Shown: piece after piece, positions 13 through 18,440 of the stretch
Layout of the letters: each line of letters opens with the position of its first letter
Numbering within the stretch: position 1 is the first letter of the stretch
Source of the DNA: Paenibacillus guangzhouensis
Lineage (GTDB): Bacteria; Bacillota; Bacilli; Paenibacillales; Paenibacillaceae
NCBI RefSeq assembly: GCF_009363075.1
Contig: NZ_CP045293.1
Coordinates: forward strand, 6,528,501 to 6,592,500
Reading direction: 5' to 3'
Length of the DNA: 64,000 nucleotides
The notes under the pieces: model-generated
Seen by the model: the letters and a program-made list of their open reading frames with translations, nothing else
What the model was told of the DNA's origin: nothing
Databases searched by the model: none
Made by a program: the position numbers and the translations under genes

Positions 13-345
13 ATGCCTACTTATACCTATAACAAGCTCGTGCGTGATTTGATACCACAGATCATTGAAGCACAAGGGAAACGAGCGAATACGAGCGTAC
101 TCGAAGAATTCGACTATATGGAAGCGTTGAGAGTGAAGTACCGTGAAGAGACGCAGGAGTATTTTGAAGCGAACAACAATGAGGAGGCGCTGGAAGAGCT
201 GGCTGATGCATTAGAGGTCATTCGTGCATTGGCGGTTGGACATGGCGCATCTTGGGACGAGCTCGAACAGATCCGAGCGAAAAAAACTGAGGCGCGTGGG
301 GGATTTCAGAATCGGGTCTATCTGATCGATGTAGTCGAGGATTGA
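13..345 (+). CDS. MazG-like nucleoside triphosphate pyrophosphohydrolase
   Basis: A 110-residue protein of the all-alpha NTP pyrophosphohydrolase (MazG-like / phosphoribosyl-ATP pyrophosphohydrolase-like) type. It opens with the typical YNKLVRDLIPQII segment. An acidic helix follows (KYREETQEYFEA, then EEALEELADALEVI), giving the E-x-x-E ... E-x-x-D arrangement that binds Mg2+ in this family. Such proteins hydrolyse (often non-canonical) NTPs to NMP and PPi in the cytoplasm. A GTG at 7 is in frame, but the GGAGA at 1-5 is properly spaced only for the ATG at 13, so I start there. The gene sits 26 bp upstream of the PucR regulator; no functional link is apparent. The substrate cannot be read from the sequence. 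Confidence 0.8.
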   Translation: MPTYTYNKLVRDLIPQIIEAQGKRANTSVLEEFDYMEALRVKYREETQEYFEANNNEEALEELADALEVIRALAVGHGASWDELEQIRAKKTEARGGFQNRVYLIDVVED

Positions 346-6554: not shown

Positions 6555-6602
6555 GCTGAGAGATTAATCCAATGATATCCAAAAATGGAGGAGAATCGAT
6601 CG

Positions 6603-7040
6603 ATGAAACATCTAAAGTCATTATTGATGGTCTGTCTTACTATCGTGCTAATCCTTTCTTTATCGAACGTAGCGCTCGCGAAGTCATCCAAGTCAACCTT
6701 AAAAAGCTATAAAATTACGTTCGTCAGTGCGAAATTGGTAGAGAACAACCATGTGGGGAACGAATGGAGCACAGGCGCGGAAGTGAATGGTCAAGCGATA
6801 TCCGTAGGGAAGAGCAAGACATTGAAACTGAAAGATTCAGATATGATAATACTGACTGCTACAGCCATCGAAGAGGACAAAGTGCCAGATGAAGGGACGG
6901 AATCGGAAGAAGTTGAGGTTAGTTCATTAACGAAGCAGAAGACGACCAGTAAAATCAATGTAATGGTGACTGAGAATCGTGGAAGATACTCTGGTAATAC
7001 GGCAACGTGGACGTTTATGTTTAAAATCGAGAAGTTATAA
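6603..7040 (+). CDS. Secreted protein of unknown function
   Basis: A 145-residue protein with a clear Sec signal peptide (MKHLKSLLMVC... hydrophobic core, then SNVALAKS as the probable cleavage region around residue 26). The mature part is about 120 residues, rich in Lys, Ser and Thr, with alternating beta-strand-like segments (YKITFVSAKLVENNHVGNEW; TWTFMFKIEKL at the end). It resembles small beta-sandwich exported proteins, but I do not recognise a family. I chose the ATG at 6603 because GGAGG at 6588-6592 is correctly spaced for it; the ATG at 6585 lies before that RBS. It is a single-gene unit between its own promoter and terminator. Confidence 0.7.
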   Translation: MKHLKSLLMVCLTIVLILSLSNVALAKSSKSTLKSYKITFVSAKLVENNHVGNEWSTGAEVNGQAISVGKSKTLKLKDSDMIILTATAIEEDKVPDEGTESEEVEVSSLTKQKTTSKINVMVTENRGRYSGNTATWTFMFKIEKL

Positions 7041-7045
7041 ATATT

Positions 7046-7076
7046 AGGGATATCCCGGGTGGGATGTCCCTTTTTT
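7046..7076 (+). terminator. Terminator after the secreted protein gene
   Basis: Stem AGGGATATCCC / GGGATGTCCCT (11 pairs with one G-U) around a 3-nt loop, followed by T6. Confidence 0.88.
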
Positions 7077-7094: not shown

Positions 7095-7655
7095 CAAATA
7101 ACTGCAAAAAAAGCAGTTATTACGCACAAAGTAGCGCGTACGCTCCAAAATAACTGCCAAAAAGCAGTTATTTTGCTCAAAGAAGCGCCCGCGTCTCAAA
7201 ATAACTGCCAAAAGGCAGTTATTTTGCTCAAAGCGGCGCCCGCGCCCCAAAATAACTGCCAAAAAGCAGTTATTTCGCTCAAAGAAGCGCCCACGCCTCA
7301 AAATAACTGCCAAAAAGCAGTTATTTCGCTCGCAGCAGCGGCTGCTACCCCAAATAACTGCAAAAAGGCAGTTATTTCGCTCTCAGTAACGCGTGCGCCC
7401 TAAAATAACTGCCAAAAAGCAGTTATTTCGCTCAAAGAAGCGCCCACGCCTCAAAATAACTGCCCAAAAGCAGTTATTTCGTTCAAAGAAGCGCGTGCGT
7501 CTCAAAATAACTGCCAAAAGGCAGTTATTTTGCTCAAAGCGGCGCCCGCATCTCCAAATAACTGCCAAAAGGCAGTTATTTCGCTCAAAGTAGCGCCCAC
7601 GCCCCAAAATAACTGCCAAAAGGCAGTTATTTCGCTCAAAGTAGTGCCCGCGCCC
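7095..7655. repeat. Tandem array 1: eleven 51-bp hairpin repeats
   Basis: Eleven head-to-tail units. Each carries the inverted repeat TAACTGC-(N)AAAA(N)-GCAGTTA and a less conserved spacer of the type TTTCGCTCAAAG.AGCGCCC.CGCC.CAAAA. The TAACTGC motif begins at 7099, 7151, 7202, 7253, 7304, 7355, 7406, 7457, 7508, 7559 and 7610: one 52-bp step, then exactly 51 bp. Both 7-nt arms are intact in all eleven units. Differences fall in the loop and the spacer. The A-rich loop is always on the + strand. Because 51 is divisible by 3, several reading frames stay open through the array, but they have no start signals and are not genes. The array fills most of the gap 7077-7788. Confidence 0.95.
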
Positions 7656-7788
7656 CACAAATCTACCCCGATTAGCCGTATGCTTCCCAACAACCTCATC
7701 CTATCAATTTAACTCTCGCCACCCCGCCTCGACGAGTGCTAGAATGCAAATGAGAAGCGAACAATTTTACCAAAATGGGGTGTAGACG

Positions 7789-8718
7789 TTGAACGAGTAT
7801 ACGACCGTGCCGCCACTGCGATTTGGGGTGATAGCAGACTTGCATCAAGACATCATGCATGATGGACCCGAGCGATTACAGGCATTTATTGATCGAATGA
7901 AGGTGGCAGATGTTGATTTCATCATCCAGTTAGGGGACTTTTGCTTTCCGATTCCGGAGAACGAAGTGATCCTCCGCATCTGGAACCTATTCGAAGGACC
8001 GAAATTCCACGTTCTCGGTAATCATGACATGGATCGGAATGACAAATTGGAGATTCAGAACTATCTTGGCATGCCTAACCATTACTATTCCTTCGATGCG
8101 GGCACGTACCATTTCGTCGTACTCGATGCGAATTATTATAAGCACGAGGACCAATACGTCGATTACAATAACGGCAACTACTATGCGCACGGAGAGCAAT
8201 TGCCCTACATCCCCGATGAGCAACTGCAATGGTTGATCGACGATTTATCGCGAACTGACCGACACACCATTATTTTCAGCCATCAAAGTCTCCACAATCC
8301 AACTGACGGCGTGCGGAATCGAGACGATGTACACGCTGCACTCGTCGCAGCCAATCAGGCCGCAGAGTTCCCCAAAGTCATCGCGTGCTTCAACGGACAT
8401 AACCATATCGATGCAGCCATCACCCGTGATGGGATCCATTACATTGAGGTGAACAGCACGTCCAATCAATGGCTTGGCGAAGGCTATGAATACGATCAAT
8501 ACGAAGCATCGATCCGAAGCCGAAGACCGGCAATGAAATATGTTGCGATGTATGCAGATCCGCTCTATATGACCGTTACGATCGCACCGAATATGATTCA
8601 GATCGAGGGCATCCAGAGCGAGTTCGTCGGTCCTGCGCCACGGGAGCGCGGGCATGAAGGGATCGTATGTGGTCATGAAATTACGGCGACTATCACTTCG
8701 CGACATTTGATGTTCTAA
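7789..8718 (+). CDS. Metallophosphoesterase (calcineurin-like)
   Basis: A 309-residue calcineurin-like phosphoesterase. The five metal-binding motifs are visible in order: D-x-H in VIADLH near residue 17, GD in QLGDF near 50, GNHD near 82, H in FSHQS, and GHNH near 205. These ligate a two-metal centre that hydrolyses phosphomonoesters or diesters. There is no signal peptide, so it should be cytoplasmic. The start is a TTG at 7789 preceded by GGGGTG; no better in-frame ATG exists near the motif-bearing N-terminus. It is a lone gene after the repeat array. The substrate cannot be inferred; related proteins act on cyclic nucleotides, phospholipids or glycerophosphodiesters. Confidence 0.85.
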   Translation: MNEYTTVPPLRFGVIADLHQDIMHDGPERLQAFIDRMKVADVDFIIQLGDFCFPIPENEVILRIWNLFEGPKFHVLGNHDMDRNDKLEIQNYLGMPNHYYSFDAGTYHFVVLDANYYKHEDQYVDYNNGNYYAHGEQLPYIPDEQLQWLIDDLSRTDRHTIIFSHQSLHNPTDGVRNRDDVHAALVAANQAAEFPKVIACFNGHNHIDAAITRDGIHYIEVNSTSNQWLGEGYEYDQYEASIRSRRPAMKYVAMYADPLYMTVTIAPNMIQIEGIQSEFVGPAPRERGHEGIVCGHEITATITSRHLMF

Positions 8719-17749: not shown

Positions 17750-17784
17750 GTGTTTTAGATGGGGGAGTGCTAGTATGCGCGCAT

Positions 17785-18440
17785 GTGCGGAATAACTGCA
17801 AAAAAGCAGTTAATCGGTGAGAAAGTAGCTCGGATGTGCGGAATAACTGCAAAAAAGCAGTTAATTGGCGTGAAAGTAGCTCATGTGTGCGGAATAACTG
17901 CCAAAAAGCAGTTAATTGGTGGCGAAAGTGGCTAATTTGTGCGGTATAACTGTCAAAAAGCAGTTAATTGGCGTGAAAGTAGCTCGTGAGTGCGGAATAA
18001 CTGCAAAAAAGCAGTTAATTGGCTGGAAAAGTAGCTCATGTGTACGAAATAACTGCAAAAAAGCAGTTAATTGGCGCGAAAGTAGCTCGGATGTGCGGAA
18101 TAACTGCAAAAAAGCAGTTAATTGGTGGTAAAGTGGCTCGCGTGTGCGGAATAACTGCCAAAAGGCAGTTAATTGGTGGGAAAGTAGCTCGTATGTGCGA
18201 AATAACTGCCAAAAAGCAGTTAATCGGCGGGAAAGTGGCTCGTATGTGCGAAATAACTGCCAAAAAGCAGTTAATCGGCGTGAAAGTAGCTTGTATGTGC
18301 GAAATAACTGCCAAAAAGCAGTTAATTGGTGGCGAAAGTGTCTAATGTGTGCGAAATAACTGCAAAAAAGCAGCTAATTGGCGTGAAAGTAGCTAATGTG
18401 TGCGGAATAACTGCCAAAAAGCAGTTATTCCGCTCAAAGG
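17785..18440. repeat. Tandem array 2: thirteen 51-bp hairpin repeats
   Basis: Thirteen head-to-tail units of the same family as array 1. The TAACTGC motif starts at 17793, 17844, 17895, 17947, 17998, 18050, 18101, 18152, 18203, 18254, 18305, 18357 and 18408 (steps of 51 or 52 bp). Both arms TAACTGC / GCAGTTA are intact in eleven units; unit 4 (TAACTGT) and unit 12 (GCAGCTA) each carry one change. The spacer is a variant of array 1: AATTGGCGTGAAAGTAGCTC.TATGTGCGGAA. After the last hairpin the sequence switches to the array-1-type spacer (TTATTCCGCTCAAAGGAGGCGCC). The loop A-run is again on the + strand. Long open frames through it are a by-product of the period. The array fills the gap between convergent genes. 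Confidence 0.95.

What the first reader, a model, noticed from the sequence alone, without database searches (positions are those of the whole stretch)
7095..7655. Eleven-unit 51-bp tandem hairpin array
The unit core TAACTGC-(A-rich loop)-GCAGTTA is kept in both arms in all eleven copies, while loop and spacer vary. This shows selection or recent copying of the hairpin. The loop A-run has one orientation. The period is exactly 51 bp after the first step, about five helical turns, which would put every hairpin on the same face of DNA. It follows a terminator and is not itself a run of good terminators (stems are AT-rich outside the CTGC core and lack T runs). It could be a protein-binding array, a nucleoid or segregation site, or a structured transcript. 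I know of no described system with these features.
Basis: partly seen in the sequence, partly recalled or inferred. Interest (0 to 1): 0.72.

Follow-up and report, generated by a model that had tools for sequence, protein, structure and literature searches.

The report
Phased palindrome arrays behind genes
A bacterium of the Paenibacillus family carries 41 detected arrays of one short inverted-repeat DNA word, repeated every 51-52 bases, nearly all in gaps where a gene ends; related species carry the word in sets of four with a fixed spacing, and it is likely a binding site for a DNA-organising protein that has not been identified.

Summary
The array is real: eleven units (window 7096-7662), every TAACTGC/GCAGTTA arm intact. 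A second lies at 17783-18427. The genome holds at least 41 such arrays (476 units; 366 exact cores, 0 in the reversed-pattern control), stepping 51 or 52 bp. Fourteen of 15 arrays examined in Paenibacillus terrigena sit at the same places in the same orientation; cores are kept (0.92-1.00) while spacers drift (0.37-0.72). Arrays avoid divergent gaps (2 of 40), point with the replication fork (35 of 41) and lie in the origin half (35 of 41); 14 of 41 have a strict terminator just upstream. Elsewhere in Paenibacillaceae the usual form is a quartet of sites spaced 50-61-50 bp, polarity flipping in the middle; 61-50 is about one helical turn, and AT content repeats every 10.2 bp. Arm changes here are never compensated (0 of 126), so conservation follows sequence, not pairing. 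I read it as a REP/BIME-like element: helically phased sites for an unidentified dimeric DNA-binding protein at transcription-unit ends, probably architectural. Protein and function are inferred; a selfish repeat is a serious rival. No match in Rfam, plasmids or phages; five literature searches listed no description. Ten of 16 site-rich genomes lack a Y1 (RAYT-type) transposase.

The parts
7096..7662 (+). Array 1: eleven units of 51 bp (first step 52), inverted-repeat core TAACTGC-N6/7-GCAGTTA, A-rich centre on + strand; cores at 7099-7119, then 7151-7170 and every 51 bp to 7610-7629
   Evidence: ten of the eleven units (6-nt centres) also
7046..7071 (+). Intrinsic terminator of the upstream gene, just before array 1
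   Evidence: stem of 11 pairs, tail TTTTTATTAT
6585..7040 (+). Upstream co-oriented ORF (151 aa; signal-peptide-like start, judged by eye), ends 58 bp before the first core
7789..8718 (+). Downstream co-oriented ORF (309 aa; looks like a calcineurin-type metallophosphoesterase, name recalled, not tested)
17783..18427 (+). Array 2: 12.6 copies of the same core, steps 51/52, different spacers; its P. terrigena counterpart is at the same place and orientation (12 units against 13)
   Evidence: L052-L106
17716..17749 (+). Intrinsic terminator just before array 2

Best explanation
The array is a row of inverted-repeat sites repeated every 51 bp, likely all on one face of the DNA helix, and it would be bound by an unidentified dimeric DNA-binding protein that marks or organises the chromosome where transcription units end. 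Shown: the sites, the 51/52-bp step, the quartet with 50-61-50 spacing in other genera, the avoidance of divergent gaps, the orientation bias, the conservation of sites over spacers. Inferred: that a protein binds (half-sites are kept by sequence, not by pairing), that its bound units co-operate along one helical face, and that the result is an architectural element behind genes (supercoil or transcription boundary, as proposed for BIMEs). In this genus the element would have grown by tandem duplication of one 51-bp period into arrays of 2 to 24 units.
For: Steps: 319 of 51, 100 of 52, 9 of 50, five doubles (101-103) and one 33+18 split. A motif-blind scan for inverted repeats with alike arms 30-80 bp apart finds pairs only at 50-52 in this genome's stretches and at 49-51 and 60-62 (plus one at 30) in other-species loci; those loci had been chosen for the motif, not for spacing. 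Quartets: 44, polarity of the central purine tract flips across the middle in 40, opposite in 2, tied in 2 (one locus counted twice, L132 = L145; L067 gives several). AT power at 10.2 bp is 1.56, at most 0.61 at the other eleven harmonics; in spacers alone 0.39 against a maximum of 0.34 in 300 shuffles. Arms: 0 of 126 changed pairs compensated, 3332 pairs examined. Thirteen orthologous multi-unit pairs: core identity 0.92-1.00, spacer 0.37-0.72; unrelated arrays 0.35. Place: 14 of 15 P. terrigena arrays match array positions here, orientation conserved in all 14. Divergent gaps: 2 of 40 arrays here; 1 of 50 elements in other species against 20 of 60 other gaps.
Against: No binding protein was found and none was tested. 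G001, a congener, has 0 exact cores, 1 loose site against 2 in the control, no array in 400 kb by TRF or the motif-blind scan, and four loci aligned to array loci carry none, so the element is dispensable. Counts range from 0 to 423 within one family, as a selfish repeat would show. Across species pairing exceeds all 300 shuffles at arm positions 2 and 3, and at 6 for Watson-Crick pairs only, and symmetric stem variants exist (AACGGC/GCCGTT; ACCTGC/GCAGGT), which also fit hairpins. Spacer AT periodicity peaks at 9-9.5 bp, is not above shuffles at 10.5, and spacers share ancestry. Core identity is helped by the search pattern (at most 3 of 14 mismatches). A strict terminator within 200 bp upstream is found for only 14 of 41 arrays (0.5 expected).
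Confidence: 0.42

Rival explanations
1. A selfish or nearly neutral REP-like repeat: quartets were dispersed long ago by an unknown mobiliser into harmless DNA behind genes, and arrays grow and shrink by slippage; conservation of the site reflects the mobiliser's recognition, not a host function.
For: Very patchy counts within one family (31 of 394 genomes with 10 or more sites, counted by eye). Dispersed quartets within G072 up to 85% identical on different contigs (L139-L140). Four G001 loci without arrays. Copy number differs between orthologues, e.g. 15 against 7.
Against: 14 of 15 examined P. terrigena arrays are at the same places and orientation with cores kept and spacers drifting, which is hard without selection on the host chromosome. 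No Y1 transposase in 10 of 16 site-rich genomes. Array 1 has no blastn match on plasmids or phages in the collections.
Confidence: 0.33
2. A transcript-level element: tandem RNA hairpins acting as weak back-up (bidirectional) terminators or 3'-end stabilisers.
For: Window stretches of about one unit fold better than shuffles (z -2.1 to -4.8 in five folds). Placement behind genes. Some quartets abut both convergent stop codons within about 21 bp (L144, L152), so termination may happen inside them.
Against: No unit is flagged terminator-like in either window array, and both window arrays have a terminator in front. 0 of 126 compensated changes; other species carry mismatched arms such as AATAACTGC...GCACTTGTT. 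Helical-turn spacing and the pseudo-dyad have no RNA reason. No Rfam match.
Confidence: 0.15
3. A CRISPR or CRISPR-like memory array.
For: Short palindromic repeat with about 31-bp spacers at a constant period.
Against: Spacers are alike within an array (mean identity 0.36-0.89, median 0.67, in 39 arrays), so they are not unique; 41 arrays in one genome. cas genes were not searched.
Confidence: 0.01

Closest known systems
REP elements and BIMEs (bacterial interspersed mosaic elements)
   Same: Short intergenic palindromes in high copy, regularly spaced, with alternating polarity in composites; mostly between unidirectional and convergent genes (PMC3733652, passages; PMC2817692, abstract); protein-binding and chromosome-organisation roles proposed (PMC2817692, abstract).
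   Different: No GTAG/CGTC foot in the consensus; strict spacing 50-52 and 60-62; no Y1/RAYT transposase in 10 of 16 site-rich genomes; arms not kept by pairing; in 398 genomes of the class more than one site per genome was seen only inside the family.
STAR elements of staphylococci
   Same: Intergenic direct repeats in a Bacilli genus whose loci expand and contract with locus-specific spacers (PMC3532100, abstract).
   Different: STAR has a GC-rich signature T[GAT]TGTTG[GT]GGCCC[CA] (PMC5294841, passage), absent from the unit consensus; STAR locations differ between species, here 14 of 15 are shared by two species.
Multi-site operators or transposase/recombinase end sites
   Same: Several dyad sites at fixed helical spacing with an overall dyad (recalled, no call).
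   Different: No protein family recurs beside most arrays: among 312 predicted proteins in the 40 stretches the largest similarity cluster has 14 members (clusters not annotated). Placed behind genes, not before them.

Membership tests
REP/BIME (GTAG or CGTC superfamilies) | Palindrome of 20-40 bp, high copy, intergenic | tested here: met
   366 exact cores, 41 arrays; gap placement by home-made gene calls
REP/BIME (GTAG or CGTC superfamilies) | GTAG or CGTC tetranucleotide at one foot of the palindrome | tested here: not met
   Consensus feet are CGAAA and ATTGG over 39 array consensuses
REP/BIME (GTAG or CGTC superfamilies) | Cognate RAYT (Y1 tyrosine transposase) in the genome (GTAG class) | tested here: not met
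   PF01797 absent in 10 of 16 site-rich genomes; this genome has only two abutting partial matches
REP/BIME (GTAG or CGTC superfamilies) | Binding by gyrase, IHF or other proteins | not testable with these tools
   Needs experiment
STAR elements | GC-rich STAR signature | tested here: not met
   Unit consensus read by eye against the signature quoted in PMC5294841
CRISPR | Identical repeats with unique spacers | tested here: not met
   Spacers within an array 0.36-0.89 alike, median 0.67, 39 arrays
CRISPR | cas genes | not tested
   No search made
Intrinsic terminator | GC stem followed by a T run | tested here: not met
   flag no unit of the two window arrays on either strand; quartets of other species were not scanned
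Known structured RNA (Rfam 15) | Match at the gathering score | tested here: not met
   no match in the window or in 18 loci

The most novel reading that the evidence does not exclude
Paenibacillaceae have their own chromosome-organising system: a dedicated dimeric protein binds helically phased sites (quartets 50-61-50, or long 51-bp arrays) at the ends of transcription units in the origin-proximal chromosome, with polarity set by the replication fork, forming fixed topological or segregation boundaries.
Probability: 0.25. Interest if true: 0.85.

Novelty: new variant of a known kind. Interest (0 to 1): 0.64.

Why it matters
It gives a bacterial family a repeat class with a rule that can be read off the DNA: sites at whole helical turns, a pseudo-dyad quartet, placement behind genes, conserved position with drifting spacers. 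If a protein binds it, the sites give a ready bait and map for a chromosome-architecture factor; if it is selfish, its mobiliser is unlike the transposase known for REPs. Either way the long-standing question of what REP/BIME-like repeats do becomes testable in a new lineage.

Tried and rejected
Y1/RAYT mobiliser: PF01797 over 16 site-rich and 16 site-poor genomes matched 6 and 4; no link. Shared adjacent gene: all-against-all protein comparison around arrays here (largest clusters 14, 12 and 9 proteins) and with other species added under stricter cut-offs (largest 5) showed none recurring beside most arrays; clusters were not annotated. Plasmid or phage carriage: blastn with array 1 only, none. 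Rfam: none. Hairpin covariation: none here, weak elsewhere. Gene-lock against fork-lock of orientation: in most tandem gaps they cannot be told apart; in convergent and divergent gaps the array goes with the fork in 15 of 16, so I favour the fork, with reserve. Orthologue of the window's own array-1 site in P. terrigena: the downstream gene has only distant matches there (best 35% identity over part), so that site could not be compared. Bacteroidales and Saprospiraceae matches were not followed. One search ended in a script error and was rerun. One search gave within-array spacer figures that counted each unit with itself and took flank for the last spacer; replace it.

Limits: gene calls come from a home-made hexamer scorer, some flanking ORFs are short and doubtful; other-species loci are the first listed matches, not a random sample; one search counts two loci twice (L132/L145 among 22 tandem, L126/L134 among 3 inside); BLAST scored 40 of 45 candidates, so a few arrays may be missing; terminus taken as opposite dnaA, not tested; the identity of G002 as P. 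terrigena rests on equal contig lengths.

Full report
What is in the window. Array 1 (7096-7662) has eleven units, all with exact TAACTGC and GCAGTTA arms; the first has a 7-nt centre, the rest 6 nt, so the step is 52 once and then 51. A terminator (7046-7071) precedes it and no unit is flagged terminator-like on either strand. A second array (17783-18427) has the same core, other spacers and its own preceding terminator.

The genome. The exact core with a 6-nt centre occurs 366 times, the reversed control pattern 0 times. BLAST with array 1 found matches over the chromosome (40 of 45 candidates scored). In 40 stretches fetched around them a script found 41 arrays of 2-24 units, 476 units with at most 3 of 14 arm mismatches. 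Steps are 319 of 51, 100 of 52, 9 of 50, five doubles and one 33+18 split, so only five places inside arrays are skipped. Centres are A-rich on one strand within nearly every array; spacers differ between arrays.

Placement. With home-made gene calls, 24 arrays are in tandem gaps, 14 in convergent, 2 in divergent; one could not be assigned. Other gaps of 100 bp or more in the same stretches, by subtraction and so approximate, are 51 tandem, 7 convergent, 34 divergent. The gene upstream is co-oriented in 32 of 40. A strict terminator (perfect stem, T run) lies within 200 bp upstream on the sense strand in 14 of 41 arrays, 0.5 expected from shuffles; others with imperfect stems are visible in the sequences printed but were not counted. 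dnaA lies at 5.377 Mb. Taking the origin there and the terminus opposite, 35 of 41 arrays point with the fork, and 223 of 315 called genes do; in convergent and divergent gaps, where gene direction is neutral, 15 of 16 arrays do. 35 of 41 arrays are in the origin-proximal half. In G377, 18 of 25 clusters of exact sites are (P = 0.04; dnaA, sites, clustered by hand).

Conservation. G002, whose contig lengths equal those of Paenibacillus terrigena DSM 21567, has 84 exact cores. Of 15 arrays in 14 of its loci, 14 lie where this genome has an array, all 14 in the same orientation; one (L119) does not. One of the 14 (L057) has only a single recognised unit. For the other thirteen pairs core identity is 0.92-1.00 and spacer identity 0.37-0.72; first spacers of different arrays here are 0.35 alike, spacers within an array 0.36-0.89, median 0.67, 39 arrays. 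So spacers are partly kept at some loci (L025-L061, 0.72) and lost at others. Core identity is helped by the search pattern. 5' flanks of 700 bp are 0.82-0.89 alike at five of seven pairs and 0.37-0.43 at two. Array length differs between orthologues (15 against 7, 9 against 7, 5 against 5). In contrast G001 of the same genus has 0 exact cores, no array in 400 kb, and four loci aligned to array loci here carry none; at one of them (L024-L088) the neighbourhood differs, so it is not a clean empty site.

The family. With AATAASTGC-N6-GCASTTATT and up to 2 mismatches, 31 of 394 genomes of the family have 10 or more sites (counted by eye); the control never exceeds 2. In 398 genomes drawn from the class, at 1 mismatch, 15 have a match: five are in the family and ten outside it have one match each. 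Named carriers of a two-unit pattern include P. terrigena, sabuli, daejeonensis, rubinfantis, phocaensis, apiarius and Cohnella zeiphila; three Bacteroidota contigs in that list were not followed up.

The quartet. In other genera the usual form in the loci fetched is four sites spaced 50/51, 60-62, 50/51 bp. 44 such quartets were found (L132 and L145 are one locus; L067 contributes several); the purine-rich strand of the 6-bp centre flips between sites 1-2 and 3-4 in 40, the opposite in 2, tied in 2. A motif-blind scan, for inverted repeats with alike arms 30-80 bp apart, gives only 50-52 here, 49-51 and 60-62 elsewhere (and one at 30), and a single pair at 55 in G001. The 61-50 difference is 11 bp, about one turn. 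Long arrays also occur in G232 (12 units, 51 bp, stem AACGGC/GCCGTT) and G057 (L123, 50 bp), and G377 has a mixed array of 21 sites (L067).

Hairpin or half-site. In this genome 3332 arm pairs hold 126 with a change: 68 left only, 55 right only, 3 both and not paired, 0 compensated; many left changes are one inherited change in a few arrays. Over 211 distinct units of other species, pairing exceeds all 300 shuffles at positions 2 and 3, and at 6 for Watson-Crick pairs only, and stays within them at the other positions; related loci inflate such excess. Sequence of each half-site, rather than pairing, is therefore mainly what is kept, as expected for a dimeric DNA-binding protein. AT content across 39 array consensuses has its main power at 10.2 bp (1.56, next 0.61); in the spacers alone it exceeds all 300 shuffles at 9-10.2 bp but not at 10.5. 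So AT-rich steps recur about every turn, which may favour bending or wrapping.

Function. Elements in other species avoid divergent gaps (1 of 50 assignable against 20 of 60 other gaps) and favour convergent ones (27 against 7; two loci counted twice). The simplest single reading is a phased protein-binding element at transcription-unit ends, working like a BIME. A selfish repeat remains a serious rival because of patchiness. A Y1 transposase is absent in 10 of 16 site-rich genomes. Array 1 has no blastn match in the plasmid and phage collections, and Rfam has no match.

Literature. Searches listed no paper that, by title or abstract, describes such a Paenibacillaceae element; the library holds open-licence PMC papers only. 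PMC3733652 (passages) says REPs lie mostly between unidirectional and convergent ORFs and carry GTAG or CGTC ends; it does not mention Paenibacillus. PMC2817692 and PMC3532100 (abstracts), PMC5294841 and PMC13155455 (passages) gave BIME, STAR, false-CRISPR and inverted-repeat background.

Verdict. A real, conserved repeat class that I found nowhere described: a new variant of the REP/BIME kind by working style, not a member of the described REP families.

Noticed in passing
G000 C1:2220747-2221102: The only Y1 transposase traces found in this genome are two abutting partial matches, probably a broken gene.
   Followed up: no
L050, left of the array: An IS3-like transposase gene (by recall) lies upstream of this array here; in P. 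terrigena (L059) the near flank differs.
   Followed up: partly
L033 (G000) and L117 (P. terrigena): Two arrays bracket one gene in both species.
   Followed up: partly
L064 3422-3690; L066 and L068: G377 carries other tandem repeats (55, 50, 48, 117 bp) near its quartets.
   Followed up: no
L067 2997-4140: Higher-order array of 21 sites with recurring steps 50-61-50-49, suggesting duplication of a whole quartet block.
   Followed up: partly
L098, L111, L113: Bacteroidota contigs matched the two-unit pattern; relation unknown.
   Followed up: no
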